NCBI GenBank assembly: GCA_013360465.1
Contig: JABWBO010000035.1
Span: 1-53,539 of the forward strand
Length of the DNA stretch: 53,539 bases
Source: Anaerolineae bacterium
Lineage (GTDB): Bacteria; Chloroflexota; Anaerolineae; Aggregatilineales; Phototrophicaceae
Reading direction: 5' to 3'
The number at the start of each line of letters is the position of its first letter. Within the stretch, counting starts at the first letter, position 1. The notes below the pieces were generated by a model. That model saw nothing but the letters and a program-made list of their open reading frames with translations, made no database searches and was not told where the DNA came from. Position numbers and translations under genes: made by a program. Shown here piece by piece: positions 1 to 33,312 of the stretch.

Positions 1-73
1 ACGCCTTTCTACGCTTTCTTGGCACCTCTTCCTTCTGTTTCGACTGGCTTACCCACTATGCCCCGCCTTTATT

Positions 74-1006
74 GTGCATTCGCTAAATCTGTCTCCCATG
101 AGCGGGATACTTTTCTGCGGCATTGTTGAAGGCGAAGAACATCCCATGCTGGCTGATTACATCCCAGCGAAAGAAGGCGTTCGCGGACACTGGGATTTCT
201 ATATCTGCAATACCAAGAAGAACTCACGCAACCACAAATGTCCGTCCAAGCGTATCGGCGCACGTATTCTGGAGCAGTCCGTTATTGACTGCCTTATGAA
301 TACCATACTCACACGCGACCATCTGCGACCTCTCGCCGATGCTATCGCTCAGCAGGTATCCCAGACGAATACGGACGCTGGAGTCAGACTCAGTGCAGTT
401 CAGGACGAGCTGTCGCACGTTGAGCGGCAGGTTAATAATCTCCTGAATGCGATAGAGGAGATGGGACTGTCGCCAAGCCTGAAGGAAAAGCTCACAAAAC
501 GGGAAGCGGAGAAAGAAAGGCTCAAGAGCGAAGTTTCGGTTTTGGAGCGCACCATCATCAGCGTTACAGAAATTCCTCATATCACCGACGCCATGATTGA
601 CGAGTGGATCGCCCACATCCGCACGGCATTACAAAGCACCGACCTCGAAGTCTCGCGGCGGGCAATTCGTCAATTCGTGAGCAAAATTGTCGTTCTGGAT
701 GGCGAAGGGGAGATTTACTACACGTTCCCGGTACTACCTGATGGCACAGATCGTAGACATCTAGGAAAAGGGGAGGTGGACCTGAGGGGCAGAGTTTCGT
801 ACACTAGACATACGCTCGACTTCCCCATCTCTGAGCCGCTGTCTACGACGACCGATGAGCGTTACCCCGACAAGCAGCAGCTCAACGAGCTGATTCATGC
901 GCTACGCGAACAGGGAATGAACTACCGTGAGATTGGAACGCGGCTCGGCATTCATTGGACGCGCATCGGGCAGATCCTGAAGCGTGCGAATTCGGATTGG
1001 ACTTAG
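74..1006 (+). pseudogene. Large serine recombinase, C-terminal half only (5'-truncated)
   Basis: From about position 98 the protein aligns by eye with the C-terminal half of the intact recombinase at 33313-35046. Shared parts are a zinc-ribbon segment (LSG-like start, FCG, then a later Cys), the block LEQSVID, a coiled coil of about 90 residues, the block IRQFVSKIVV and the YYTFP motif, then DLR. The N-terminal catalytic domain with the nucleophilic serine is absent, and the 24 codons before the GTG at 74 show no recombinase similarity. After DLR it continues about 73 residues beyond the end of the other copy. That tail carries a helix-turn-helix (MNYREIGTRLGIHWTRIGQI), common at recombinase C-termini. 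It cannot catalyse recombination as it stands. The frame is open to the window edge, so how much is missing upstream is unknown. Confidence 0.75.
777..788 (+). repeat. Candidate att core, left copy (TGGACCTGAGGG)
   Basis: This 12-bp sequence is identical to 35024-35035 and lies in the same codon phase in both recombinase genes, encoding the DLR segment. It would bound a segment of about 34.2 kb. The surrounding DNA is also related because both genes are homologous (for example TACTACACGTTCCCG occurs upstream of both), so the identity may reflect ancestry alone. The att role is inferred. Confidence 0.4.
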
Positions 1007-1104: not shown

Positions 1105-2580
1105 TTACAGTTGTTCAGGAACAGTAGCCATTTCATGCACTTGCAGTGGAATATCTGTGATAGGGAGTGGATATTGGTCAACCAAATCTAGGATTTGCTT
1201 CACCGCACAGGCAATCCGTTCGCCCAAAAGCGGCGGAACTGCCTCACCGATTTGAGCGCGAACATCAGTTCCTTGGAACTCAAAATCATCACTGAACGTT
1301 TGGATGCGCGCGCGCTCCCTCAAGGTAAGCATCTGGCGATCACGTTCATAATGGTAGCCATAAGTTCCCCCACCGCCATATGCCATAACTGTCCAAGCAG
1401 GTTTAAGTGGAGACGGTCGGCGGTAAATAAAGCTGATTTCCTTGCTGGTGACACACCATTCTGTGCCATCAACAAATTCAGCGTTTTTCTCTGGCGGGAT
1501 CTGCGCCATGCGCGCCTGAACATCTTTGGACTGCTTGGGTCGCGTATTGTGGTTGTCCTTCAGATCATAAACTGGCTTACCCAACCAGCCCAACTGCTGC
1601 AATAGCTGTTCATGTTCAGCCATAGCCGCTCGGAAAGATTTTCGGTCATGATCTTTGGTGTAGTCCAAACCGAGTGCCGCGTAGTAATCTTTGATGACGT
1701 CAAACGCCAGGTGCGCGTACACTTCTCGATGCCAGTCATCGGCTTTAGGAAAGGGTTTCTCTTTGCCTAAGTCGTGATAGGCACGCATGACCTGACGGTA
1801 TTTGCCTCTCAAGCGATGAAGCGGCTGCCCTTCAAAGATTTCGATTGGGGTTAGAGGGTATCGATCGAAGTGCCACATCGATCCGGTCAGCACGTCTCTG
1901 AGTTGATCGCGCAAGCTGTTCGTCAGCCCGCCAAATGATGATGCCAAATCACTCCGAATGCCAACGATAATCAGGCGGCGGCGGGTTTGTGATACTCCGA
2001 TCATCGGGGCGTCGACCACATCCTTGAACAGTATCTCATAGCCGTTCACTGCTTCATGCGGAACCTTGATAGGCTGTGCTGCATCAATCGCCTCACGACG
2101 GTGAGTGTCGAGATTTTGCAAATCATCGAGAACTGTTCGATAGGCTTGACCGCTGTTGGCGCTGGTGAAACCGGGGACATTCTCGAACACAAACATCTTG
2201 GGCTGAAGAAACATCAGCGCCCGCAGAAAGTCTAGGTACAACGTGCCGCGCCCGCCGTTCAATCCCTCACGCTTGCTGCCCTTCGAGATCGAGAAGTCCT
2301 GGCACGGCGGACCGCCGATGAGCACATCGGGCTGCATCGAGGTGAGCGCCGAAAAGTCAACCGTCCGCACATCGCCCTGAATGACCGCAGGAAGATCATG
2401 CAGCGTGGGTGAAATCGGTGCGGTGAGCGTTTTCAAGTCAAGATTGTGCGCTAAGGTTGCTGCCGGAGACTCTTTTAGCTCCACAGCCAAGCGAGTTTCA
2501 AATCCTGCTCGATGAAATCCCCAGTCAAACCCGCCTGCACCAGAAAATACTGATGCGACAATCCGTTTGCTATCGGTCAT
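1105..2580 (-). CDS. DNA (cytosine-5-)-methyltransferase of a MORC-type R-M operon
   Basis: The protein transfers a methyl group from S-adenosylmethionine to C5 of cytosine. C5-methylase motifs appear in order: motif I FSGAGGFDWGF (residues 12-22), motif IV GGPPCQDFS with catalytic Cys93, motif VI FENVPG (about 132-137), a variable target-recognition region, and C-terminal motifs around TLRERARIQTF and GEAVPPLLGERIA. The 491-residue length is normal for the family. I start at the ATG at 2580 rather than the longer frame, because that ATG overlaps the stop of the upstream glycosylase as ATGA, which implies translational coupling. It is last in the seven-gene operon and would protect self DNA from the nuclease and ATPases. 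The target sequence cannot be read from sequence alone. Confidence 0.93.
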   Translation of the reverse strand: MTDSKRIVASVFSGAGGFDWGFHRAGFETRLAVELKESPAATLAHNLDLKTLTAPISPTLHDLPAVIQGDVRTVDFSALTSMQPDVLIGGPPCQDFSISKGSKREGLNGGRGTLYLDFLRALMFLQPKMFVFENVPGFTSANSGQAYRTVLDDLQNLDTHRREAIDAAQPIKVPHEAVNGYEILFKDVVDAPMIGVSQTRRRLIIVGIRSDLASSFGGLTNSLRDQLRDVLTGSMWHFDRYPLTPIEIFEGQPLHRLRGKYRQVMRAYHDLGKEKPFPKADDWHREVYAHLAFDVIKDYYAALGLDYTKDHDRKSFRAAMAEHEQLLQQLGWLGKPVYDLKDNHNTRPKQSKDVQARMAQIPPEKNAEFVDGTEWCVTSKEISFIYRRPSPLKPAWTVMAYGGGGTYGYHYERDRQMLTLRERARIQTFSDDFEFQGTDVRAQIGEAVPPLLGERIACAVKQILDLVDQYPLPITDIPLQVHEMATVPEQL

Positions 2581-3278
2581 TCTGCCATCTCCAGCGCTTG
2601 CACCTGCCGATTGGCAGCGTAGTAAGTGCATATCTCGTTGATCGGACACTGCTCGCACTTGGGCTTGCGCTGCGTGCAGATGGCGGCGGCAAAATCCAAC
2701 ATGCCCCAGTTGAATTCACGCGGCATGTCGTCAGGAACAAGCGCTTCGGCACACTGCCAAAGCTTCCGGTCTTCACGAGGGCGTTTACGGTGGGAAGTCC
2801 AGCCGAAAACCCGATTCATCACGCGGATTAGATTGGTATCCATCGCTGGTGCTGGCACACCGAAAGCACAGCACCGTACTGAATTGGAAATGTAGCGTCC
2901 AACTCCCGGAAGCGCTCGCAGCGCTGCATCGGATTCCAGCACTGTGCCGCCGCTGTCAATGACTGCTTGAGCGATCTGCTGAAGCTGTTTTGCGCGTACC
3001 TGATGAATACCCAACGGCTGCAGCAGACCGGCAAGTGCGGCTTGATCCATGCCGACGATTTCAGCAGGTGAGTATGGTGCCAAGGACTCGTACACCGCAG
3101 CAGCTTGCGCCGAAGTTGTCTTACGCAGCAGGACTTCGGCGAGCAGGATATTCCATGCGCTGGTTGTTTTGCGCCAAGGAAGTTCATGCCGACCGTTCTG
3201 CTGCCAGTAAGTGATCATCGCTCGCTGAAAAAGGTGTATTTTCGCCGCACGTTGCAACTTGTGCTGCCTGCTGACCAA
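2577..3278 (-). CDS. MIG/MutY-family mismatch DNA glycosylase (likely T:G)
   Basis: This is an HhH-GPD DNA glycosylase of 233 residues with a C-terminal iron-sulfur cluster (Cys201-x6-Cys208-x2-Cys211-x5-Cys217). The helix-hairpin-helix reads LPGVGRY (123-129) and the catalytic aspartate is Asp147. At the position after LPGVGR/K, endonuclease III has Lys, MutY has Ser, and the archaeal T:G glycosylase MIG has Tyr. This protein has Tyr129, 18 residues before the Asp, the same spacing as MIG. It lacks the long C-terminal domain of MutY. It sits immediately upstream of, and overlaps, the C5-methylase, so its likely job is removing thymine that arises by deamination of 5-methylcytosine. Substrate assignment is inference from motif and context. 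Confidence 0.85.
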   Translation of the reverse strand: MVSRQHKLQRAAKIHLFQRAMITYWQQNGRHELPWRKTTSAWNILLAEVLLRKTTSAQAAAVYESLAPYSPAEIVGMDQAALAGLLQPLGIHQVRAKQLQQIAQAVIDSGGTVLESDAALRALPGVGRYISNSVRCCAFGVPAPAMDTNLIRVMNRVFGWTSHRKRPREDRKLWQCAEALVPDDMPREFNWGMLDFAAAICTQRKPKCEQCPINEICTYYAANRQVQALEMAE

Positions 3279-3325
3279 CCATCGATTCTGACATTATACG
3301 CATGTTCTGTAAATTTGGCAGCCTT

Positions 3326-4120
3326 TCATGAAGGCGTTTCCACCGCATTCATGAGCGCCTCGGCGGTCTTGGCAAATACGTCATCCGTCAGCGTCCTCAG
3401 CTCCCCCTCGTTCAATGCCTCGACCACTGTCAGGGACAGAAGACGATACATGCGCTTACTGGCTTCACGCATGAGATCGCGTCTCGGTAATTCGGCGTGG
3501 CTCTTGGCTGCCATCGCAAAGGACACGCATAAAGAACGGAACAAAGCAGGGCGTACCGCGATTGAACTGCGTTCGGTCACTTGAACCAAGTCATCTTCGT
3601 TCAATCGATGCAGCAGGATGTAGGGTTCTTTCCAGCGTGGATTACAAGCAAGATAGGCGCGCCACCACAGCCGACCAAAGGCGTGTCTCCGCATTCCTCG
3701 TTCGCGTCCAACAAAGCGAATGGTATCCGTACTGTCATCGAAACGCCAGCGCACGACATCGGGCAGTAAAATGCATCCCAGAAATGACCAGACTTCGTTA
3801 TGAGATGCCTCTGAAGGATGGAGGCGCATAGTCTCATGAAGCACAATCGCGCACTCGACATCGAAAGTGCGGGCTGCATTCTTGCCTGATGTATCTGGAT
3901 AACCGTACCGATGCGCGATCGTTAGGACGGCTGCACGCAGCAGTTTAAGCTGTTCATCTGTGATGCGATTGCCTCCGGTCGGGGCATAGGTCAGAGCACC
4001 ATGACTAGTTTCCCACAGGTCTTTCAACTCATCGGCGGTTCGCGTAACGAGCGCCTCTGCCGTTTGTTGGGCGATATGCTGAGGCAAACGCGGATAGAGG
4101 TAGTAAAGTTCACTGCTCAT
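3326..4120 (-). CDS. DUF6339-like protein of the MORC-type R-M operon
   Basis: The protein has 264 residues, is predicted soluble and rich in helix, with no catalytic motif I can name. It starts MSSELYYLYPRLP and contains a conserved-looking WSFLGCILLPDVVRWRF stretch (about 130-146) and FGRLWWRAYL (about 168-177). From memory, a family of this size annotated DUF6339 accompanies Z1, PD-(D/E)XK and GHKL genes in such operons. The family name is therefore likely but not proven. Its start overlaps the end of the 300-residue gene by 11 bp, and 47 bp separate its stop from the glycosylase start. It is probably a structural or target-recognition subunit; no function can be assigned from the sequence. 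Confidence 0.6.
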   Translation of the reverse strand: MSSELYYLYPRLPQHIAQQTAEALVTRTADELKDLWETSHGALTYAPTGGNRITDEQLKLLRAAVLTIAHRYGYPDTSGKNAARTFDVECAIVLHETMRLHPSEASHNEVWSFLGCILLPDVVRWRFDDSTDTIRFVGRERGMRRHAFGRLWWRAYLACNPRWKEPYILLHRLNEDDLVQVTERSSIAVRPALFRSLCVSFAMAAKSHAELPRRDLMREASKRMYRLLSLTVVEALNEGELRTLTDDVFAKTAEALMNAVETPS

Positions 4121-5012
4121 AAGCGAATATCTTCATCTTTTCCTGCAAAAGCGCGCTGAATTCATGAGGATGCCGGGTTAGCTGCTGCACGCTTTCAAGC
4201 GTATATCCGTCAAAGTACAGGCGGATCATGGCTCTCACGGCTGCACCAATTGTGCCCGGAGTATATCGATCAGGGTTTTCGAGAAAACTTGGATTGAGCA
4301 GAACACCGCGAATCAGAGTCTGTGCGAGATCAAGGCGAACCGCTTCTCGGATTCCAGCGGTTTCCGGTTGAATATCCGATACGGCTTTGGCAATCTGCGG
4401 GTGGCGGCTGTTCACATACAGTCGAACGTCGCCCAAAAGCGGCTGTTCGAGATCGTCGGGATCCCAAGCAAGATACCAGCCCGCCTGGTGGGGAAAGCTT
4501 GTGGTCGTGAAATCGATGACCTCGATAGGAAAGCGTGCTCCATCGCCTTCAAGCTGGATTTTGTGCGGCGGCGTTTCCAGCAGAATGCTGCCGCTCAATT
4601 TTGGCACTAACTGATGCTGGGTTGTTCCGGGGCTGATAAACAGCAGTTTGACGAACAGGGTCAGCGTATCTGCCAGCAGCTTGCCGTCAATCTGAGCCGT
4701 TAGGGCAGTTCGTCCCGATGCGGCTTTATAGGTGAAATCGACAGCACCCCCACTGCCGTGCAGTTTGGTTCCGCTGGACTCCCACAGAAGAACGAGACGC
4801 AGCAACGCATCGCGTTCCAAACGGCAGTCTTGGTAAATGCCTTCCACATTGACAAACACTTCGGCGCGAATGTGTATATCCGTGCCTGCATCCCATCCTG
4901 GCAGGCGATCTCCAAGCGGCGCAGTTCGATCATCGATCTGCTGTTCCCAGTGTTCGATCACAACGCGGTCAGAAAGTGGGGTTAGGTAAGGGCGGCGCTG
5001 AACTCGTTTCAT
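4110..5012 (-). CDS. Unrecognised R-M operon protein, 300 aa
   Basis: I do not recognise this protein. It is 300 residues, soluble, without signal peptide or membrane segments. The first two thirds look beta-rich (for example ALTAQIDGKL, LSGSILLETPPHKIQLEG, GDVRLYVN). The last 90 residues look helical and include AAVRAMIRLYFDGYTLESV. The start codon overlaps the stop of the GHKL ATPase gene as ATGA, so the two are translationally coupled and the products probably interact. It could be an adaptor or specificity subunit of the MORC-like ATPase. It is the least characterised member of the operon. Confidence 0.7.
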   Translation of the reverse strand: MKRVQRRPYLTPLSDRVVIEHWEQQIDDRTAPLGDRLPGWDAGTDIHIRAEVFVNVEGIYQDCRLERDALLRLVLLWESSGTKLHGSGGAVDFTYKAASGRTALTAQIDGKLLADTLTLFVKLLFISPGTTQHQLVPKLSGSILLETPPHKIQLEGDGARFPIEVIDFTTTSFPHQAGWYLAWDPDDLEQPLLGDVRLYVNSRHPQIAKAVSDIQPETAGIREAVRLDLAQTLIRGVLLNPSFLENPDRYTPGTIGAAVRAMIRLYFDGYTLESVQQLTRHPHEFSALLQEKMKIFAYEQ

Positions 5013-7225
5013 TCGACTGCTTCCGCTTTCGCTGTCAGTTCGATATTTGCCATCATGTCATCGGGCAGCAGTGCCAGCACCTGCCATTTTTCACGGGGTT
5101 GGGATACGGCGATGAAAATGCTGCCATCGCTGTCTGCAAATACCTCACCGCTCGGTGAAACCCACCGCGCAGTATGCACCATGCTTCCACCGAGCGGCGG
5201 CTCATCCTCAATGGCATCACTGTCCAGAACCGCTTGAGCCTTGAGCCTTACCGTCGTGCCATACGCATTCTCTGCATGACGCACATCAAAGGTGATCAAG
5301 AGCGCAGGATTACCCTCATATTCGACGAGTTCATCGTAGATGATTTCAGCAGTGGAATGACCGCGAATCGGCTTGCGCATGGGCGGCTTGGCTTCAGATT
5401 TCGGAAGTGCTGCCGTTGGAAAGGTCGGCGCGGGTGGCGGCATTTGATACGACGGGGCGTTGTTCGGTTCAGCTTCGTTTCTTGGTGTCGGATCGGAATG
5501 TCCCTGTTCTGGCGGATTGATTTGCGGACGATCCGTAATCGGCAGCGAGTCGGCAGGCGCAGCGTCCGGGCTTGCACTTTGGGGAATCGTGCTGCCGCCC
5601 ATTGGGGAGGTTTCCGTGCCGCCGTTTGCTGAAAAGGTTGGATGCCTTGAAGGCTGAACGGGTACTGCACCTGTGTCTGTGCGAACAAGGAAATTGGGCA
5701 GCGTGACATTCGGGCGCTGACGCGGGCGGCTTGCTGCTGTTCCAGTTTCCGCCGGGATCAAGCTTTCACCGAGCCATGTTGCAAATGCCCCCAGCGGTGT
5801 CAGTGTGCCTACCGGCACAGTGGTGCGCGGCGCTTGGGCAAAACCAATCATCTCCTGACCGATTTTGCGGAGTGCCACACGCACAAAGGTCTTATGCCAG
5901 CTGTTGGTGAGTGAATTGGGACTCCAATCATCGTGTGTTGGAGGTTCTGATTTGGCGAACACAGAGTCTACTTCCGCGTCCGCGATAAAAACGCCCGCGT
6001 ACCCTATACTGCTGCTGGCGAGCGGTCTGCCTTCAAGATACTTCACCACCAATTCAGCCTGCCGCATGAGCGCGGTGTGGTGTGTAATCTCCGCAAACGG
6101 GCTGTCCGCGCTGCCTGTATCGAAGGAAAAGCCTCTTTGGATGAAAAACTGCTGAAGCGCGAGTCTGCCTAGATGCTGTCGAGGTTTTTCTGAACCGATT
6201 GCTTTGACATCAGCGCGAAGAACAGGTTCATCAGCACGCTGCTCCTTCAACCGTTCCATCGCCTCAACAAAGCCTGCCAGCGGCGGGAATTCTGCTGGAT
6301 GGGGGAAGTAAACGGGTGTATTTTCCCATTGAAGCTGGAATTGAATACTTGGGCGTCCCGAACCGCTGTCAAGCATTTTGGGCCAGAAGAACCACAGCGC
6401 ATACTCAGCCATGAGATTAAGCACTTGCAGCGGCGTTCTATCCATGGCTTCAAAGCTCGGCTGATCTTTTGCTCCACGATCATTTAGGAGTGGATCAAGG
6501 ATGAGGATGGTGGTTCCTGTTTCATCATCCACAAAACCACCCATTCCCAATGCTGCTGCAAGTTTATCAGCGTCAGCGTTTAAGATCGGTTCAGCGGTAT
6601 CGTTCCCGTCACGCCCCCACCAGTGTCGTCCCGTAAACTGACGATGCTGTCTGTCTGCCCACCTCTGCCCTAAAGCAGCGGCGATGAACCTAGATTCCAA
6701 ACGTCCGTTCGGCAGTTTGCAGCGGGTATGCACAAGAATCGTTCGCATGCCGCTGGCGAGATAGAGCGAGGCTTTCCCATAACCATAAGTCCCGCCTGAT
6801 AGATTCTGGTTGGATGGCTGCCCCACATCTCGCAAAAAGCTGATGAAGCGGCGAGGAGAGCCTTCCGGGACAACATCGGCGCGTGTTGGTCCTTCGAGTC
6901 CCGTTGTGCCACGATCCGTGATTATGAGGCCCAACAGCGGTTCGTCACTTTCAAGCTGAGTCATGGGCAAACTGTCAGGTGTGGGGCGCGCTGAAAACAC
7001 CTGTTCCGTCAACACCTGCCGCTGCGTGGGAAGAAGCTCCCAACCGTGAACCATATACGATAAGGCAGTGTCATCCGATAAGCGCGCATCCCAACTGTTT
7101 TGCACGGTTTCACGAATCAGCACAGCTAAGGCGTCCAACTTGGGTCGTCCAAGCTGATTGAGAATCCCGACTGAACTCATGCTGCCAGTGGGACTGACCG
7201 GTTCAGACTTCAGCGTCAAACGCAT
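5009..7225 (-). CDS. MORC/MutL-like GHKL ATPase of the R-M operon
   Basis: This is a 738-residue GHKL-fold ATPase. The N box is ETVQNSWDA (Glu39, Asn43, Asp46), the G1 box is TDRGTTG (103-109) and the G2 box is GGTYGYGK (144-151), all in the usual order and spacing. The glutamate before the N-box asparagine is the expected catalytic base. A second domain follows to about residue 500, then a Pro/Ser/Thr-rich linker (about 500-600), then a beta-rich C-terminal domain (about 615-735). GHL ATPases dimerise on ATP binding and can clamp DNA. Its neighbours are a nuclease, an SF2 ATPase and a methylase, which makes it the prokaryotic MORC-like member of a restriction system. It shares one base with the nuclease gene stop (TGATG type overlap). 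Confidence 0.88.
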   Translation of the reverse strand: MRLTLKSEPVSPTGSMSSVGILNQLGRPKLDALAVLIRETVQNSWDARLSDDTALSYMVHGWELLPTQRQVLTEQVFSARPTPDSLPMTQLESDEPLLGLIITDRGTTGLEGPTRADVVPEGSPRRFISFLRDVGQPSNQNLSGGTYGYGKASLYLASGMRTILVHTRCKLPNGRLESRFIAAALGQRWADRQHRQFTGRHWWGRDGNDTAEPILNADADKLAAALGMGGFVDDETGTTILILDPLLNDRGAKDQPSFEAMDRTPLQVLNLMAEYALWFFWPKMLDSGSGRPSIQFQLQWENTPVYFPHPAEFPPLAGFVEAMERLKEQRADEPVLRADVKAIGSEKPRQHLGRLALQQFFIQRGFSFDTGSADSPFAEITHHTALMRQAELVVKYLEGRPLASSSIGYAGVFIADAEVDSVFAKSEPPTHDDWSPNSLTNSWHKTFVRVALRKIGQEMIGFAQAPRTTVPVGTLTPLGAFATWLGESLIPAETGTAASRPRQRPNVTLPNFLVRTDTGAVPVQPSRHPTFSANGGTETSPMGGSTIPQSASPDAAPADSLPITDRPQINPPEQGHSDPTPRNEAEPNNAPSYQMPPPAPTFPTAALPKSEAKPPMRKPIRGHSTAEIIYDELVEYEGNPALLITFDVRHAENAYGTTVRLKAQAVLDSDAIEDEPPLGGSMVHTARWVSPSGEVFADSDGSIFIAVSQPREKWQVLALLPDDMMANIELTAKAEAVE

Positions 7226-8235
7226 CAGGATGCACTATCTGCCAGTGCTGCGAGTACGGCTTCGGCATTGGCTTCAATGAGAGGATGCGGCGGTGGAACC
7301 GAGAGATCAATTGTGTAGCTGATCGATGTTACACCGCGCGGCAGACTTGCACCGACGAAACTCGATGCGGTGATGCGAGGAAACCCATCATCAACGTGAT
7401 ACACACGCCGCTCACTCAGTTTGAACCGCTGATCATCCAGCAGTGACAGGATGTCTGGCGTAAAGCCTAAACGTGCCAGCTTCCGGTAAATCTCCACACG
7501 GCTTACGCCTGCATTGGAGATGGCTTCAATGAGTGATCGGAGGTTTTCGCCCCCGACCGGGGTTTCTTCAATCAGCAGTACGGCGACATGCAGACTTCCG
7601 CTCTGAAGAATCTCAAGTTGATCATGACCGTGAATCGTCAGGACAACCCCCTGCCTGCGCAGTGTCGTTTTCACCTCAAGCGCCTGCCCACCAGCATAGA
7701 AATCGAATCGTCCACCATCAGGACCCGTCCAGATCGGCAGCACAAGCGGGTTGATTCGAGCAAGACTGCGGAATGTCGTGAGTTCGCCAAACAGCCCGAT
7801 CACCGCGCTGCGCTCAGGCAACGGTGAACTATCTCGTGACAGTAGTTCACGCCATTGGTTAAGAACAGCCAAGCAGATTCGATCCGGATGACCATGCGAC
7901 TCCTTCAGTGCCGACAAAACTTCGAAGATGATGAGGTCGAACAGCCCGTTGAGATGCGGTTTCAAGCAAACCAGATCAACAAAGCGCCGATGGGCATCTT
8001 CGTCGCCCCAGTCTGCCGCCAGCAGATGTACACCGCTGCTGCGCCTATCTTCGAGCAGCCGTGCCCCCGATGTCGCTAGGATGAGCAGATGCCGCTGACC
8101 CTGCTGATCTATCGCCAGTCTCACGCTGGATGTCTCATCTGCTGATGTTTCCAGTTCGCGCACTTCAATGCTGCCATCAGGCGCGGGCGGTGGTATGAGC
8201 GACCAGATGCGCTGAATGATTTCGAGCGTGGTCAT
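7225..8235 (-). CDS. PD-(D/E)XK nuclease of the R-M operon (DUF4420-like)
   Basis: This 336-residue protein carries the restriction-endonuclease fold core. Glu151 lies in GELTTF, Asp178 in GGRFDFY, and the E-x-K motif in ALEVKTT (Glu187, Lys189), with nine residues between the aspartate and glutamate. That is the classical metal-binding and catalytic pattern. The rest resembles the PD-(D/E)XK motif proteins (Pfam DUF4420 type) that accompany Z1 proteins. It is the only evident nuclease in the operon and so the likely cutting subunit. The gene overlaps the Z1 gene by four bases (ATGA) and abuts the GHKL gene. Cleavage site and cofactor needs are unknown. Confidence 0.85.
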   Translation of the reverse strand: MTTLEIIQRIWSLIPPPAPDGSIEVRELETSADETSSVRLAIDQQGQRHLLILATSGARLLEDRRSSGVHLLAADWGDEDAHRRFVDLVCLKPHLNGLFDLIIFEVLSALKESHGHPDRICLAVLNQWRELLSRDSSPLPERSAVIGLFGELTTFRSLARINPLVLPIWTGPDGGRFDFYAGGQALEVKTTLRRQGVVLTIHGHDQLEILQSGSLHVAVLLIEETPVGGENLRSLIEAISNAGVSRVEIYRKLARLGFTPDILSLLDDQRFKLSERRVYHVDDGFPRITASSFVGASLPRGVTSISYTIDLSVPPPHPLIEANAEAVLAALADSAS

Positions 8236-10853
8236 GCTTCGCTCTCATCTTCTTCAAGAAAGTCAGGTTCGATGTACTGCTCCAAATTATCAGGATTCAC
8301 TTCGACATACTCAACTTCGTAGACGGAATCGGAAGGCGCGGGCGGGAAAACAATTCCCAATCCGACCAGATGGTCGGCGGCTTCAAGCGCGCGTTTGGTC
8401 TTGACTGAACTTTTCCCCGGCTGCGAGTCTTTGGAAATCAAATACAGAATGAGCATTCCGCGATTCTGTGTCTCGCCGTACTGCTGGCGCAGTTCGCGGA
8501 TTTCGTGTGCTTTCCTGCCTTTATACGCTGAACGGTCAGCGGGAAGGTCTGCGCCTGTATCGCCGTCGGACATCAATACACCAATGTTGGCATATTCGAC
8601 GGGGGTGGTGCGGCGGGTACGCACCAGCATCGGCACTTCAAGTCCGCCTAGATTCAGCGTCCCGTAGTTAGCTTTCTCTTTCGCGGTCACACCACGCAGC
8701 ACCACATTCCACTGGCGCAGCACACCATATTTGTTCTGCTGCCGGATGTATTCTTTCAGCGCCCGCGCTGAGACTTCCCGGCTCATTTCGTGAAACTGAT
8801 ACTGATCCAAGAAAGAAGTAATCATATCGACCGGGACGCCGTAAAGCACCTGATGCCCCGAACGATTCACGACTTGAAAGCCTAACTGCTGAATGCGGCT
8901 CACGAGATCGTTTGCTGCCTTCAAGTTTTTCCGCAGCCACTTGGCATCACGGTGGTTAAACAAGACGGTCTGAACATTGTTGTTGTCGTAGGCAATGCGC
9001 GTTTGAGCCGCGTGCTGCATCTTGGCACGCGCGGTGATGGCAAGTGCGGGATGGGTGCGAATGCGAACCCCAAACTGCTCAGGTGTCATGCCCATGTCAG
9101 CGTAGCGTTCAATATCTTGCCTGATTTCAGCCTCTACGGTGGCAAGATCATAGAAAAAGTCGCGCAGTTCTTCTGTCATCCAGATACGGGGGAGATCGGC
9201 GTAATTGGGACGATAGCCGAACCATCTGCCCATTTGCAGCAGAGTATCATAGGCGTTGGCAGCGCGCACAAAGAAGCTGACGAGCAGCCCCTCAAGAGTC
9301 AGCCCGCGCGACAGCGTGTTGCCGCCAATGGCAATTTGCAGCCGCGTGCCGTTCTCATAATTCAGCCGATTGTCGCTGCGGTAGTTATCGACCACCACAT
9401 GGGTCTGAGCGATAACCGTTGATAAATGCACCAGCAGTGCATCGAAAGTGACCACCTGCTCGGTGAACTGCTCACGCGGTAGGCGCTGCTGTTCATCGTC
9501 CCACTGCTCACGCCACTGCTGAAGCAGATGATCACGCTCGCGTCCGCCCAGCATGTCCAAAACTTCTGCTCGATAGGAGTCAATCAGCTGGCGGGTCATG
9601 TTGTGAATGTCAATATACTGGGTCGTATGAATCAGCATGGTCGAATGTTCGCCCTGCTGACCGCGCACCCAACGTGCTGCTGCCGCCATCCAGAAGTAAT
9701 TTACAGCGCTTTTCAGACTGGGAGACAGTGCAGGCAGGAAGTCGTGACGGTTTCTTGAGTCCGGCTGAAGCAGTGAAAGCTCTGTCTCAGGCACCAACCG
9801 CACCATATCCAAACCTTCGAATTCCTCATCGGTCTCGTCTTGGAGCAGACGCTCACGTCCAAAAATACGCTCCGTCCCAAAGTGACCATCGGGCTTTGGC
9901 AGTGCCACAATGAAGTTACGCGGATAAAGATCAACTTTTGAACGGGGATCAACGAGGACGCTGGCGAACGGTGTCGCTGTATAGCCGATGTAAGCCGCTT
10001 TGGGCAGCATGGTGAGCAGCTCGATTAGCCGCTGATTGATCGCAGTCCGTCGGTAGGTGTCGGGATTTCCCTGCGCTTGATTCGAGGCGGTATTGATGCT
10101 GGCTTCGTCTGCTTCGTCATCAATGATCAAGATCGGACAGCGGTCCAGAATATCGGGCGAAGCGTTTGAGAGCCAGTTGATGAGTCGGCGCAGCACTGTC
10201 CCGTTCTTCTTGACGACCGTCAGCACATGGCTGTCTTTATCCGGATTCAAGAAGTAGTTCGGATTATCCGTCAGGTTGAAATCACTGGTGCGGGTCGGCG
10301 TGTACCACAGGACATCGTTCAGCTCGACCAATTCTCGATCCAGCCGCCGCTGTGTTTGTGCCCGAAGCGATACTTTCGTCCCCGACAGTACAATAAACAC
10401 GCGATAGCCCACATCAGCGGCTTTGGCGATCACCGAAGTAAAATTCGCCGTCTTGCCGCTCTGTACATACCCAACCACGAGTCCGCGTGTTTGGAATCGG
10501 CTGGCGACCGGGTGTTCAAGCCACGCGACGATCTTGTCTGATGCGTCGTTGATCGAATCGACAGCGGGCTGTGTCCAGTTCTTGTTGTGGAGGAGATGCT
10601 GCTTGAGTGCTGGCCAGAACCGAGCGTTGGGGATTTTGTCGCCCCCAACATACCAACCCGTCTGCTCGCCGCCTTCCGGCGACAGCAGCGGCGGCGGAGT
10701 CATGCGCCGGACACGTCCGGCGCGCCTGCGAAATTCGGCAAACGCCTCATCCAACTTGTCTTTGTCTACGAACTGTAGAAGCTGCTGATACTGCTCTTCG
10801 GGCGGCAGACGCGAATTGATAAACTGCTGCGCAAGGGGTTCAATGTTTGACAT
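8232..10853 (-). CDS. Z1-domain SF2 ATPase of the R-M operon
   Basis: This is an 873-residue superfamily II helicase-like ATPase. It has Walker A GYVQSGKT (128-135), a Walker B/DEAD box IIDDEADEAS (243-252), motif III YTATP (291-295), and the C-terminal Z1 signature GGNTLSRGLTLEGL followed by QMGRWFGYR (about 520-565). Z1 proteins of this type act as nucleotide-dependent motors in restriction enzymes such as the N proteins of CglI and NgoAVII. It is the first gene of the operon. The start has only a weak ribosome site; the closest purine run is AGGCTCTTGA. Expected role: ATP-driven translocation or communication that licenses the nuclease. Confidence 0.93.
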   Translation of the reverse strand: MSNIEPLAQQFINSRLPPEEQYQQLLQFVDKDKLDEAFAEFRRRAGRVRRMTPPPLLSPEGGEQTGWYVGGDKIPNARFWPALKQHLLHNKNWTQPAVDSINDASDKIVAWLEHPVASRFQTRGLVVGYVQSGKTANFTSVIAKAADVGYRVFIVLSGTKVSLRAQTQRRLDRELVELNDVLWYTPTRTSDFNLTDNPNYFLNPDKDSHVLTVVKKNGTVLRRLINWLSNASPDILDRCPILIIDDEADEASINTASNQAQGNPDTYRRTAINQRLIELLTMLPKAAYIGYTATPFASVLVDPRSKVDLYPRNFIVALPKPDGHFGTERIFGRERLLQDETDEEFEGLDMVRLVPETELSLLQPDSRNRHDFLPALSPSLKSAVNYFWMAAAARWVRGQQGEHSTMLIHTTQYIDIHNMTRQLIDSYRAEVLDMLGGRERDHLLQQWREQWDDEQQRLPREQFTEQVVTFDALLVHLSTVIAQTHVVVDNYRSDNRLNYENGTRLQIAIGGNTLSRGLTLEGLLVSFFVRAANAYDTLLQMGRWFGYRPNYADLPRIWMTEELRDFFYDLATVEAEIRQDIERYADMGMTPEQFGVRIRTHPALAITARAKMQHAAQTRIAYDNNNVQTVLFNHRDAKWLRKNLKAANDLVSRIQQLGFQVVNRSGHQVLYGVPVDMITSFLDQYQFHEMSREVSARALKEYIRQQNKYGVLRQWNVVLRGVTAKEKANYGTLNLGGLEVPMLVRTRRTTPVEYANIGVLMSDGDTGADLPADRSAYKGRKAHEIRELRQQYGETQNRGMLILYLISKDSQPGKSSVKTKRALEAADHLVGLGIVFPPAPSDSVYEVEYVEVNPDNLEQYIEPDFLEEDESEA

Positions 10854-11054: not shown

Positions 11055-11288
11055 TCACGCAGCATAAGCATCCCTGAGCAACCGCGCCGCCCGCTTCATA
11101 TATTTCGGGAACGATGCCGGACTATAACCGTTTTCAACCGCCGCCTGGCGGTACGTCTTCCCTTCCAACTGTGCACGCAGCGCAACCGAAACGCATTTTG
11201 TGTGGCGATACTGCTCCAGCAGCGCCGCGGCAGGAGCCGTATTCCCATGCTTGTACTGCTCGCGCCAGTGGTACGGCGAGGTGAAGCG
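11055..11288 (-). pseudogene. C-terminal HTH tail of the sigma-like gene, cut off by in-frame TGA
   Basis: Directly after the TGA at 11289-11291 the same frame stays open for 77 codons to a TGA at 11055. It encodes a plausible protein end: SPYHWREQYKHG, then a helix-turn-helix-like block LEGKTYRQAAVENGY followed by SFPKYMKRAARLL. There is no start codon with a ribosome site at its beginning, so it looks like the severed 3' end of one gene rather than a second gene. A single CGA to TGA change at a CpG would explain it; readthrough is the alternative. Confidence 0.55.
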
Positions 11289-11987
11289 TCAGTGATTGGG
11301 ATGCTCGACCGGCTGCTCGAACAACCCCGGTGGCGGGTACGTGTGCCCTTCGAGGAACACCTCTGCGAATTCATATTGGAGTTCCTGCTGGACGTACAAC
11401 CCATAGCGCTGATACCAACGCCACACGTCGGTCGTGACAATATTCGCGGCGGCTTCTTTGCCGACTTGGGTCGTATGGTAGTACAGCGCGACCAAGTGCT
11501 TCGTTGACGACAGGTACTTGTTCGCCAGCTTGTGCATGATCCGCTCGATGTCGATCCGCATGTCGATTTCCGTCGCCCAGCCTGCCCAGCGTTCGCCCTG
11601 CTGGTGCTGCAAACCGTCGATCACGTTCTCGTCGGCGGTATCACGACGGTCACTCTTGATCAGCGCGTCGAGGCTGTCGTACTGGTTCGCTTGGTAGCGG
11701 ATCGTCGAAATCTTGCAGCGTGCCAAAATGAAGAACACGGTCTGCTTGCGTGTTTTCTCTGCGAGGAAATCATGCTGCTCAACGAGCGTTTCCCACAGCG
11801 TCATGAACCCGAACTGCAAGCAGTCGGGTAGTTCGTCCTCGAACACACCGAAGTTCTTCATCACGTTCGAGGCGTAATGGGCGAGATCGTCGTAGATTTG
11901 CTGAAACGTCAGATCGCCTGCCCAACCAGTCGGGTACACGGCAGCACGGGGATACGGGCGAATATTGCTGCGAAACTCAGAAGTCAT
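11289..11987 (-). CDS. Sigma-70-like (ECF type) protein, shortened by in-frame TGA
   Basis: The 232-residue product has a region-2-like segment DELPDCLQFGFMTLWETLVE (about 50-69) followed by basic and aromatic residues, and a region-4-like helical segment with LVALYYHTTQVGKEAAANIV (about 165-185). I start at the ATG at 11987, because GGGAG lies eight bases upstream; the GTG at 11996 would leave no spacing. A second helix-turn-helix follows in frame after the stop (see 11055-11288), so the intact protein was probably about 310 residues. Possible roles are an ECF sigma factor or a sigma-like regulator of the element. Which promoters it reads is unknown. Confidence 0.55.
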   Translation of the reverse strand: MTSEFRSNIRPYPRAAVYPTGWAGDLTFQQIYDDLAHYASNVMKNFGVFEDELPDCLQFGFMTLWETLVEQHDFLAEKTRKQTVFFILARCKISTIRYQANQYDSLDALIKSDRRDTADENVIDGLQHQQGERWAGWATEIDMRIDIERIMHKLANKYLSSTKHLVALYYHTTQVGKEAAANIVTTDVWRWYQRYGLYVQQELQYEFAEVFLEGHTYPPPGLFEQPVEHPNH

Positions 11988-12507
11988 GGTGAACACTCCC
12001 TCTCAAACTGGAATCTGCCAGCGCAGGTGAGCGCAACCGCTCACACACGCGGGAACAGCGCAGGGAAGGAGACTGTCAAACGAAAAAGTCGACCCGGTGA
12101 AGGCGGCGCTTTGTCGATTGCGGTTGTAGGCGAGGCTTTTTAGGCAGGTAGTTCGGTGGTCACGTCCCGCAGGGATGGGGGCAGCGTACTACCTGCCGGT
12201 GTTTGAGAGGAAGGAGTCACGCGCTGTAGAGTCGCCGCGTCGGCGGTTGTGCGAGGAATGGAAGTTTGTTGCTTCTGCCGACACTTCCGCATTTCCAACA
12301 AAGGTTGAGCGACCGTTTACCCCGAAATCGAAATAATGCAGTACAAACAGATCGAGCAAGATTACCCTCGCGATCCTTGAGTTCTTCAGCAGATCGATCT
12401 GTGCAGCGAATTTCGAACGAAGCCGTGTTTGCAGCAAACTACTAAGTTGGGAAACTCTGGCACATATACTGTGCCGGATCATAGTAGTTCTGTTCATGCA
12501 TATCGGA
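11988..12507. other. 520-bp non-coding leader with strong hairpins
   Basis: I see no convincing gene here. Three perfect inverted repeats are present. GTGAGCG/CGCTCAC with a four-base loop lies at 12027-12044. GGCAGGTAGT/ACTACCTGCC spans 12143-12197 and encloses a small TCCC-GCA-GGGA stem. GGCACA-TATAC-TGTGCC lies at 12459-12475. The first two sit in what would be the 5' leader of the sigma-like gene on the minus strand. The third lies just past the 96-residue gene and could be an operator. No tRNA or known riboswitch core is evident. Confidence 0.5.
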
Positions 12508-12798
12508 TTACACCGGCGGTTCGTTGTTCTGAGCGCGCGTTTGGTTCAACTTGTCGCGTATTGCCATTGCTTCTGTGTACTCATCCGTAGGCTTTGTGGG
12601 AAATGCAGAACTGCCATCAGTTACAGTCTTGTCGTAGGACGTACTCGTTCGCGTACTCGTTTGGTCGCGAAAGAACAACTGGTAAGCAAGGTAAGTGAAA
12701 ACCAATAGAATGGGCAGGTCGAAAGGGGGACTGGCTGAGATGATCAAGCGCGAGGCGATATATCCGACGATGATTGCCCCGAAGATACGTCCTGTCAT
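12508..12798 (-). CDS. Small membrane protein with duplicated C-terminal tail
   Basis: This is a 96-residue protein with two predicted membrane segments in the first half (IFGAIIVGYIASRLIISA and LPILLVFTYLAYQLFF), a Ser/Thr-rich stretch, and a hydrophilic tail starting DEYTEAMAIRDK and ending QNNEPPV. Its last 25 residues are identical to those of the membrane protein at 14880-15353. The DNA encoding the tail matches with about four differences in 85 bp. Upstream AGGAGCAATAA provides a ribosome site. Function unknown; the tail would face one side of the membrane and could be a docking peptide. Confidence 0.6.
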   Translation of the reverse strand: MTGRIFGAIIVGYIASRLIISASPPFDLPILLVFTYLAYQLFFRDQTSTRTSTSYDKTVTDGSSAFPTKPTDEYTEAMAIRDKLNQTRAQNNEPPV

Positions 12799-14822: not shown

Positions 14823-14879
14823 GGAAGCCGCGTGAGCCTCTCAGAACCGCAACACGGACGGTTGAATAAAGGCGAAAAA

Positions 14880-15353
14880 TCACACCGGCGGCTCGTTGTT
14901 CTGAGCGCGCGTTTGATTCAACTTGTCGCGTATTGCCATTGCTTCTGTGTACTCATCAGCAGGCTTTCCATTTCCAGAGGAACTCTTGCCGAAGATCCAG
15001 ACCAAAACAACAAACCCGACAAAGGGGAAAAGTACTGGCAGAACGCTAAAAAATACCACTGCAAGGACTATAAGCACTACCGTCACGGCTGTCCGTTGTG
15101 CCACAGTCTTGAATTGCCTACGAGCTAATGGAAGTACAATGGCAGTCATCAACAAATAGATGATCGGAAAGACAATCACCGCCAAAGCGGCAATTATTAC
15201 CTGTGCACCGCCATTCGAAGACAATCGACTGATGATAACTGCGCACCCGATGAGTCCAACAAGATAAAGTCCTAAGAACTGATTAAACCACTGCTTTAGC
15301 CCACCTTTCTTAGGTGGTTTGCGACCGATTTCCGATTGATTAGCGGTTGACAT
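14880..15353 (-). CDS. Multi-pass membrane protein sharing a tail with the 12508 gene
   Basis: I chose the ATG at 15353 because AAGGGCT precedes it. The 157-residue product has a basic N-terminus (RKPPKKGGLK) and about four hydrophobic segments (LGLYLVGLIGCAVII, VIIAALAVIVFPIIYLLMTAIV, TAVTVVLIVLAVVFF, LFPFVGFVVLVWIFG). It ends in the same 25-residue tail as the small membrane protein at 12508. It may be DUF-type; I do not recognise it. The duplication brackets the 481-residue and TPR genes. Confidence 0.65.
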   Translation of the reverse strand: MSTANQSEIGRKPPKKGGLKQWFNQFLGLYLVGLIGCAVIISRLSSNGGAQVIIAALAVIVFPIIYLLMTAIVLPLARRQFKTVAQRTAVTVVLIVLAVVFFSVLPVLFPFVGFVVLVWIFGKSSSGNGKPADEYTEAMAIRDKLNQTRAQNNEPPV

Positions 15354-24681: not shown

Positions 24682-24917
24682 TTCACAGTTTTCACATCTT
24701 TCACAGCCCGCAGATCACACTTTTCAGCGCGCCGTAGATAGGGGTGTGAAAATATGTAATTCATGCGGGCGATGAGGTTTTGAACCTGTGAACCTGTGAA
24801 GGCTGTGAATATGAAAAGAGCCTGCTTCACAGGTTTCACAACCCTCACAGGCTCATTCACTCATTTATGCGGATATGTGCTGTACTTGCGCTTCAAGCCT
24901 CGGTTTCACACCCTTCA
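24682..24917. repeat. Iteron-like TTCACA repeat array
   Basis: TTCACA or its complement TGTGAA recurs with an 8-9 bp period. Forward copies are at 24682, 24691 and 24700. Inverted copies are at 24787, 24795 and 24804. Forward copies are at 24826 and 24835, with CTCACA at 24844. Two more lie inside the 3' end of the primase-helicase gene near 24904-24917. AACCTGTGAAG (24791-24801) and CTTCACAGGTT (24825-24835) form an 11-bp inverted repeat that could also terminate transcription between the convergent genes. Position beside a primase-helicase suggests an iteron origin; this is inference. Confidence 0.6.
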
Positions 24918-27796: not shown

Positions 27797-27880
27797 ATTT
27801 ATTCCTTCGGATATCACACAGGGGTTTGAAGCGCACTCGTTTGGCGACAGGATCGCTTCATTCCCTTGTGTGCTTTTCGG

Positions 27881-33243: not shown

Positions 33244-33312
33244 CCTACGGAATTACATGAAGTCGCGTAGGAAGAGCCGCAATCAAGGTGAAAGTTGAGT
33301 TTGGAAAGCGCC

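What the first reader, a model, noticed from the sequence alone, without database searches (positions are those of the whole stretch)
1105..10853. Seven-gene MORC-type restriction-modification operon on a mobile element
Every adjacent pair from Z1 ATPase to GHKL ATPase to the two associated proteins overlaps, and the glycosylase overlaps the methylase, so the seven genes form one translational unit. Motifs for motor (GYVQSGKT, DEAD), nuclease (EVK core), GHL ATPase (N, G1, G2 boxes) and C5-methylase are all intact. MORC/MutL-like ATPases in restriction operons were noted in comparative genomics by Iyer, Abhiman and Aravind; their mechanism is largely unknown. This copy is complete and includes two uncharacterised subunits.
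Basis: partly seen in the sequence, partly recalled or inferred. Interest (0 to 1): 0.82.

Follow-up and report, generated by a model that had tools for sequence, protein, structure and literature searches.

The report
Restriction operon with its own repair enzyme
A seven-gene bacterial defence operon of a type described in 2008 probably marks its own DNA and cuts unmarked DNA, and here it carries a thymine-removing DNA glycosylase where most relatives examined carry an unrelated repair nuclease, probably to undo mutations that its own marking causes.

Summary
All seven genes are present with intact motifs, but in two units: Z1 / PD-(D/E)XK / GHKL / P4 / DUF6339 overlap, then a 47-nt gap with a promoter-like TATAAT, then glycosylase / C5-methylase. 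The operon class was described by Iyer et al. 2008 (Z1-type helicase, RE-fold nuclease, methylase, Vsr). The ATPase is not MORC: it lacks the MORC motif and has the paraMORC2 ExxxH motif, as do all 11 sequences tested. Z1 and nuclease are homologues of MzaC and MzaD under the cut-offs; no MzaB or AIPR was found. The glycosylase, left unexplained, is not MutY but a relative of the T:G mismatch glycosylase Mig.MthI (best PDB match 1KEA; S/W where MutY has V/Q). Of 28 related loci with a methylase, 20 carry Vsr, 5 a Mig-type enzyme, 3 neither, 0 both; no Vsr was detected in the window's genome. Best reading: a horizontally moving paraMORC2 restriction-modification system in which a Mig-type glycosylase stands in for Vsr as repairer of deaminated 5-methylcytosine. 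Nothing was assayed. New variant of a known kind.

The parts
8232..10853 (-). Z1-domain SF2 helicase/motor (873 aa), MzaC homologue
   Evidence: Pfam Z1 2.3e-67, PADLOC MzaC 1.1e-100, NCBIfam MzaC 401 bits (cut-off 1500 not reached); Walker A, DEAD and DThhQXuRhFG motifs
7225..8235 (-). PD-(D/E)XK nuclease (DUF4420, 336 aa), MzaD homologue
   Evidence: Pfam 1e-44, NCBIfam MzaD 74.6 bits (cut-off 420 not reached); E151, D178, E187, K189 invariant in 8 of 8
5009..7225 (-). paraMORC2-type GHKL ATPase (738 aa)
   Evidence: N-box, G1, G2 boxes and E427PPTH431, no MORC motif; PADLOC PDC-M33A 4.1e-12; no Pfam hit at E<=1
4110..5012 (-). P4: conserved accessory protein, 300 aa, no family in Pfam, PADLOC, NCBIfam or PHROGs
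   Evidence: conserved at this place in relatives; model pLDDT 84, pTM 0.55, beta-sandwich at residues about 13-156 and a helical C-terminal part
3326..4120 (-). DUF6339 accessory protein, 264 aa, predicted nearly all-helical
   Evidence: Pfam 5.5e-17; PADLOC PDC-M33C 8.2e-10; model pLDDT 83, no PDB match at E<=0.001
3293..3321 (-). promoter-like site in the 47-nt gap between restriction and modification modules (lead only)
   Evidence: CTGCCA-17-TATAAT, 10 of 12; 7 such sites found against 6.4 expected in the region
2577..3278 (-). Mig-type HhH-GPD glycosylase with Fe-S motif (233 aa from TTG 3278; TTG 3257 and ATG 3218 are other possible starts), predicted T:G mismatch thymine-DNA glycosylase
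   Evidence: 1KEA 7.7e-46 against MutY 1.7e-26; Glu, Tyr and Asp of the Mig active site present, S/W at the MutY V45/Q182 positions; NCBIfam mutY 139.5 bits, cut-off 286.5
1105..2580 (-). C5-cytosine DNA methyltransferase (491 aa from ATG 2580)
   Evidence: PF00145 2e-46, TIGR00675 138.8 bits (cut-off 100.65), PADLOC MTase_II 2e-130; motifs; ATGA overlap with the glycosylase
2..1006 (+). C-terminal part of a large serine recombinase, cut by the contig start (context, not part of the operon)
   Evidence: phrog_95 integrase 3.1e-16; frame open to the contig start
33295..35046 (+). complete serine recombinase at a GC step (context, possible right end of the island)
   Evidence: Pfam Resolvase 8.1e-11, Zn_ribbon_recom 4.9e-06; GC 0.555 to 0.625

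Best explanation
A two-module restriction-modification locus. Modification module: a C5-methylase marks a host sequence (inferred from the intact enzyme), and a Mig-type glycosylase cuts out thymine from the T:G mispairs that arise where marked cytosines deaminate, so that base-excision repair restores C:G (inferred from family, pocket residues and position). It stands where Vsr stands in most relatives examined. Restriction module: a Z1 motor, a PD-(D/E)XK nuclease, a paraMORC2 GHKL ATP-clamp and two accessory proteins form an ATP-driven complex that recognises unmethylated target sites, moves along or loops the DNA and cuts it (inferred; the looping idea is that of Iyer et al. 2008). Shown here: gene content, order, intact motifs, the Mig-like signature, the alternation of Vsr and Mig-type enzymes across 28 loci, and no detectable Vsr in the window's genome. 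Not shown: any activity, the target sequence, or any complex.
For: Family hits and motifs. Same core gene order in relatives from several phyla. Published class with the same parts. Mig.MthI is the best solved relative, 7.7e-46 against 1.7e-26 for the best MutY, and mig of pFV1 is the best-ranked plasmid hit. Of 40 glycosylases, both MutY-determining positions are non-MutY in 23 of 23 that have a C5-methylase in the fetched locus and in 1 of 17 without; that one lies at a contig edge (Fisher). A tree puts 16 of the 17 solo enzymes in one supported clade (100/99), outside which the window lies. Vsr 20, Mig-type 5, neither 3, both 0 of 28 loci, Fisher p 0.0006, not corrected for kinship. In L007 the glycosylase sits head-to-head beside the methylase, where proteobacterial relatives have Vsr. 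Own genome 0 Vsr matches (assembly 97% complete, 256 contigs).
Against: No activity is shown. The window enzyme has S/W, not Mig.MthI's own A/L, at the two pocket positions; among the 40, W occurs also in two Thermus enzymes, L071 and L074. Exclusivity is weaker in the 18 Z1-bearing loci alone (2 Mig-type, 14 Vsr, 2 neither, p 0.039). Two Vsr-bearing loci (L051, L055) also have a degenerate HhH-GPD domain fused to the methylase, so the classes are not perfectly separate. In 4 of 8 genomes of the phylum with a Mig-type enzyme that were checked, a Vsr lies on another contig (G094, G230, G149, G100). The nuclease was not detected in 2 of 18 Z1-bearing loci (L002, L054), so it is not universal in the core. 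The glycosylase is separated from the restriction genes by a gap, and methylase-glycosylase pairs also occur without this restriction module.
Confidence: 0.73

Rival explanations
1. The glycosylase is part of the attack: it excises modified or mismatched pyrimidines from phage DNA, making abasic sites that the nuclease complex turns into breaks.
For: Antiviral and restriction glycosylases exist: R.PabI family (PMC10273834, passages seen); a 5hmC glycosylase against T-even phages (PMC13160076, search listing only). In L060 and L072 the glycosylase gene lies next to the nuclease gene.
Against: In the window it overlaps the methylase, not the nuclease. It pairs with C5-methylases outside this system: Thermus, Caldicellulosiruptor and Methanothermobacter plasmids. 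It alternates with Vsr. The pocket resembles Mig rather than MutY.
Confidence: 0.1
2. The glycosylase is an ordinary MutY that happens to lie beside the methylase.
For: TIGR01084 mutY is its best NCBIfam hit.
Against: Score 139.5 against a cut-off of 286.5; no V/Q determinants; 233 aa, too short for the MutY C-terminal domain; outside the supported solo clade. A second match to the same profile lies elsewhere in the genome, presumably the genome's own MutY; its place was not listed and I did not inspect it.
Confidence: 0.04
3. The operon is a decayed or methylase-only cargo whose restriction half no longer works.
For: An adjacent gene (11292-11996) looks shortened against its copies; relatives are rare in the phylum (10 of 399 other genomes at E<=1e-10, one of them below 1e-20).
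Against: All seven frames are open with intact motifs where motifs are known, and five of the six junctions are still overlapping.
Confidence: 0.08
4. Not restriction by cutting but an abortive, self-harming response triggered through the GHKL clamp, as might be guessed from the AIPR proteins of MZA systems.
For: Homology of Z1 and nuclease to MZA; AIPR in the MZA-like locus L057.
Against: No AIPR or known toxin family in the nine window proteins scanned; a methylase for self-marking is present.
Confidence: 0.12

Closest known systems
Third class of MORC/paraMORC restriction-modification operons, Iyer, Abhiman and Aravind 2008 (PMC2292703)
   Same: SF2 helicase with DThhQXuRhFG motif, RE-fold nuclease with E-D-ExK, GHKL+S5 ATPase, DNA cytosine methylase
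   Different: The paper pairs the methylase with Vsr and its main text does not hold the word glycosylase; here a Mig-type glycosylase and no detected Vsr, plus two accessory proteins (P4, DUF6339)
MZA anti-phage system (MzaB-E profiles in NCBIfam and PADLOC)
   Same: MzaC-like Z1 and MzaD-like nuclease
   Different: Below both equivalog cut-offs; paraMORC2 instead of MzaB; P4 and DUF6339 but no AIPR (MzaE). One locus of the same phylum, L057, has MzaB-, C-, D- and E-like proteins (also under the NCBIfam cut-offs) plus methylase plus Mig-type glycosylase
PADLOC candidate PDC-M33
   Same: GHKL (M33A) and DUF6339 (M33C) hits
   Different: Hits are weak, P4 hits nothing; Z1 and nuclease added
Mig.MthI, T:G mismatch glycosylase of plasmid pFV1, beside restriction-modification genes
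   Same: 38.9% identity over 89% of the query, Fe-S motif, Glu/Tyr/Asp active site, C5-methylase gene nearby
   Different: S/W instead of A/L in the base pocket; sits in a paraMORC2 operon instead of beside an NgoPII-type restriction pair

Membership tests
MORC (Iyer 2008) | S5-domain motif GhXhhpXXRhl | tested here: not met
   0 of 11 sequences incl. the window; motif text
paraMORC2 (Iyer 2008) | GHKL boxes plus conserved ExxxH late in the S5 domain | tested here: met
   EPPxH in 11 of 11, E427/H431 in the window; that it lies in the S5 domain is inferred from position, and the motif is short
Iyer class 3 restriction-modification operon | helicase with DThhQXuRhFG, E-D-ExK nuclease, methylase neighbour | tested here: met
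MZA system | MzaC and MzaD at equivalog level | tested here: not met
   401 of 1500 and 74.6 of 420 bits; homologous but under the cut-offs
MZA system | MzaB and AIPR-type MzaE present | tested here: not met
   no hit among the nine window proteins scanned
PDC-M33 (PADLOC) | all its components present | tested here: inconclusive
   A and C hit weakly, no other component hit
Mig-type T:G glycosylase | HhH-GPD family, Fe-S motif, Glu42/Tyr126/Asp144 of Mig | tested here: met
   Tyr126 is present in all 40 aligned enzymes and so does not discriminate
Mig-type T:G glycosylase | non-MutY residues at the V45/Q182 positions (A50/L187 in Mig) | tested here: met
   S/W in the window; role of the positions from PMC2714593, abstract and passages
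Mig-type T:G glycosylase | T:G excision activity | not testable with these tools
   needs a glycosylase assay
MutY | V45/Q182 determinants and equivalog score | tested here: not met
   S/W; 139.5 of 286.5 bits
Restriction-modification | methylation protects, unmethylated DNA is cut | not testable with these tools
   needs cloning, methylome and plating

The most novel reading that the evidence does not exclude
Repair of deaminated 5mC is a standard, interchangeable part of paraMORC and MZA-type restriction systems, filled several times by unrelated enzymes (Vsr nuclease or Mig glycosylase), and sometimes reduced to a catalytically dead HhH-GPD domain fused to the methylase that now serves as a DNA- or lesion-reading subunit. 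The boldest form: the glycosylase or its dead derivative feeds the GHKL-Z1-nuclease machine, so that one complex both repairs marked host DNA and cuts unmarked or base-modified phage DNA.
Probability: 0.12. Interest if true: 0.75.

Novelty: new variant of a known kind. Interest (0 to 1): 0.46.

Why it matters
C5-methylation is mutagenic, and systems that use it need a way to pay for it. Here two unrelated enzymes fill the same slot in the same operon type and were not found together in 28 loci, which makes the idea directly testable: swap Vsr and the Mig-type enzyme and count C-to-T mutations at methylated sites. It also gives a cleaner definition of an uncharacterised defence family (Z1, DUF4420, paraMORC2, P4, DUF6339) whose mechanism was left as a proposal in 2008, and a two-residue signature that may tell 'MutY'-labelled genes beside methylases from true MutY.

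Tried and rejected
MutL idea: I asked whether a Mig-type enzyme stands in for Vsr where the host lacks MutL (Vsr works with MutL in E. coli, recalled). Not supported: of 12 genomes with a Mig-type enzyme, 10 have a MutL match (PF01119), the window's and L007's among them, and 2 do not (G094; G280, which is 76% complete); while 9 of 9 actinobacterial genomes have none, 8 of which carry Vsr in the locus (20 of 31 genomes positive in all).

Tyr126 as a Mig marker: rejected, all 40 enzymes have Tyr.

Virus connection: pattern scans with the GHKL alignment and with the glycosylase found no relative in viral contigs. Phage records: 30 with a match, the 15 listed at 31% identity or less, those with annotation called MutY or adenine glycosylase.

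Fold of DUF6339: no PDB match at E<=0.001. P4: only a common beta-sandwich (best Z 8.6, rmsd 3.2, 108 residues, RbmA); no function is drawn from it. A weak match does not exclude other folds; the helical half of P4 was barely tested.

Fusion of methylase and glycosylase: the Thermus hit H29 is annotated under a methylase gene, but that gene ends 29 bases into the match and no gene is annotated over the rest; I did not check the frame. Fusions are seen in L015, L051 and L055, but by my reading of the alignments the catalytic Asp and the Tyr are lost there.

Rows dropped before the count of 28: L006 (near-copy of L005), L014 (same record as L003), L015 counted with L003, and nine GHKL loci of the phylum search without a DUF6339-plus-methylase pair (L027, L029, L031-L037; L027 and L029 lie on short or cut contigs). 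An earlier test with 'neither' = 4 was corrected to 3. L041's GHKL is split in two frames; L041 was counted but is not in the GHKL tree. L004 is counted as neither, though a 57-residue glycosylase-like stretch remains there. For L002 the methylase and Vsr lie about 2 kb beyond the fetched stretch.


Full report
Observation. The seven genes exist as described, all on the minus strand between 1105 and 10853. Family scans give Z1 (2.3e-67), DUF4420 (1e-44), DUF6339 (5.5e-17), HhH-GPD (2.8e-12) and DNA_methylase (2e-46), each above its Pfam cut-off; the GHKL protein and the protein at 4110-5012 (called P4 here) hit no Pfam family at E<=1. Junctions: ATGA (Z1/DUF4420), 1 nt (DUF4420/GHKL), ATGA (GHKL/P4), 11 nt (P4/DUF6339), then a gap of 47 nt, then ATGA (glycosylase/methylase, with the methylase starting at ATG 2580). 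The gap carries a TATAAT with a CTGCCA 17 nt upstream. Such sites are as frequent in shuffled sequence (7 against 6.4), so two promoters are plausible but not shown. The coupled units are five genes and two, not seven.

What the restriction half is. Z1 has Walker A (GYVQSGKT), DEAD and the motif DTLLQMGRWFG, which fits the DThhQXuRhFG given by Iyer et al. 2008 for the helicase of their third operon class. DUF4420 keeps E-D-ExK in 8 of 8 aligned sequences. Of that paper I read two of the four parts of its main section and searched the main text for terms. It describes helicase, RE-fold nuclease, DNA methylases and Vsr with MORC or paraMORC ATPases. The window's ATPase lacks the MORC motif and has EPPTH, which fits the ExxxH given for paraMORC2; the same holds for all 11 sequences of the alignment, window included. 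So 'MORC-type' should read paraMORC2. Z1 and nuclease are homologues of MzaC and MzaD but far under the equivalog cut-offs, and no MzaB or AIPR was found among the nine window proteins scanned. It is related to, but not a member of, the MZA system as those profiles define it.

Conservation. Relatives in public genomes and plasmids show Z1, nuclease, GHKL, P4 and DUF6339 in the same order in Alpha- and Gammaproteobacteria, Actinobacteria and a Synechococcus plasmid. Of 18 Z1-bearing loci, window included, the nuclease was not detected in 2 (L002, L054), and in L052 DUF6339 is fused to a methylase. The GHKL profile finds 11 of 400 genomes of the window's phylum at E<=1e-10, the window's own among them, and only one other below 1e-20; and, at E<=1e-20, 5 of 398 in the phylum of L008 and 7 of 296 in the phylum of L012, each counting the centre genome. 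A rare, patchy system, so horizontal movement is likely.

The glycosylase. Its best solved relative is 1KEA, Mig.MthI (7.7e-46), ahead of MutY (1.7e-26) and endonuclease III (2.7e-17). The top-ranked plasmid match is mig of pFV1. The NCBIfam mutY score is 139.5 with a cut-off of 286.5. PMC2714593 (abstract and passages) reports that V45 and Q182 of E. coli MutY are key to adenine specificity, that Mig.MthI has A50 and L187 there, and that exchanging both turned Mig.MthI toward A/G; the reverse exchange in MutY gave no T:G activity. The first exchange is from Fondufe-Mittendorf et al. 2002, which is not held. The window has S and W. I aligned 40 enzymes (21, 19 more). Of 23 with a C5-methylase in the fetched locus (up to 4.8 kb away), 23 have neither V/I at the first position nor Q at the second. 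Of 17 without, 1 does (L069, whose gene starts at a contig edge); three others have one MutY-like residue of the two (L073, L081, L085). Fisher p 2.7e-10, not corrected for kinship. The sample was picked from plasmid hits and from top or short-frame phylum hits, not at random, and some loci end at contig edges. L070 is odd (T/E). In a tree, 16 of the 17 solo enzymes form one clade (100/99). The window lies outside it, nearest Caldicellulosiruptor and Thermus enzymes that also sit beside methylases (support 83/69, so weak).

The swap. Among 28 loci with the GHKL-family ATPase and a methylase, 20 carry Vsr, 5 a Mig-type enzyme (window, L007, L039, L040, L041), 3 neither (L003/L015, L004, L054), 0 both (Fisher p 0.0006, kinship not corrected; p 0.039 in the 18 with Z1). 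No Vsr is found in the window's genome, in that of L007, or on the plasmids of L039-L041. In L007 the glycosylase lies head-to-head beside the methylase, the place of Vsr in L005, L008, L009, L010, L047 and L048. In the GHKL tree the Mig-bearing loci fall in two separate supported groups, haloarchaeal and Z1-bearing, so the repairer has switched more than once (quick method, no bootstrap; L041 left out). In the same phylum as the window, L057 carries MzaB-, C-, D- and E-like proteins plus methylase plus Mig-type enzyme, and L060 and L072 carry a GHKL, Z1, DUF4420 or its profile match, and the glycosylase behind a methylase. Against a clean rule: L051 and L055 have Vsr and also a methylase with a C-terminal HhH-GPD-like domain that keeps the Fe-S cysteines but, by my reading of the alignment, has lost the catalytic Asp and the Tyr; L015 has such a methylase and no Vsr on its plasmid. 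Of 8 phylum genomes with a Mig-type enzyme that were checked, 4 have a Vsr on another contig.

Mechanism. Most likely: the methylase marks self; the Mig-type glycosylase repairs T:G at deaminated marks; the paraMORC2 clamp with the Z1 motor brings the nuclease to unmarked sites, and it cuts. The first two steps rest on family, residues and context, the last on family and on the model proposed in 2008. P4 (beta-sandwich plus helices) and DUF6339 (helical) look like recognition or scaffold parts rather than enzymes; this is inference only.

Mobile context. The left end of the window is the contig start and cuts a serine-recombinase gene. A complete serine recombinase lies at 33295-35046 at a GC step, with a DUF927 protein at 24893-27817. 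An island is likely; its limits are not shown. The organism was not identified.

Novelty. I found no report of a Mig-type enzyme in MORC, paraMORC or MZA operons in the listings, nor by term search inside PMC2292703, PMC8011034 and the archaeal survey PMC10609329 ('glycosylase' 0 times in each). The listings show only the best rows, most subscription papers are not held, and I looked at no supplements. PADLOC files the glycosylase under a 'Type II nicking endonuclease' profile, so curators may already group it with repair enzymes of restriction systems. A Mig gene near a methylase on pFV1 is on record. Hence: new variant of a known kind, moderate interest.

Noticed in passing
window 11292-11996 (-), with 11096-11440 (-): 235-aa protein without a hit at the thresholds used in Pfam gathering, PADLOC, NCBIfam or PHROGs; seven matches in the genome including itself (two others at 94-95%). 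The other six lie in open frames of 291-339 aa against 237 here, so this copy looks shortened.
   Followed up: partly
L015 3895-5817, L051 3391-5361, L055 3369-5390: C5-methylases with a C-terminal HhH-GPD-like domain whose Fe-S cysteines are kept but whose catalytic Asp and Tyr seem lost; perhaps a DNA-reading module.
   Followed up: partly
L003 and L015 (one Synechococcus plasmid), L039 (Halomicrobium plasmid): Two GHKL sets pointing away from each other on one replicon: a double paraMORC arrangement.
   Followed up: no
L004 3644-3814: 57-residue stretch 56% identical to the L039 glycosylase, with no glycosylase profile hit in the locus: probably a remnant.
   Followed up: no
window 12507-12595 and 14879-14967: 89-nt direct repeat, 94% identical.
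   Followed up: no
L052 11847-13688: DUF6339 fused to a C5-methylase domain, which ties this accessory protein to the modification enzyme.
   Followed up: no
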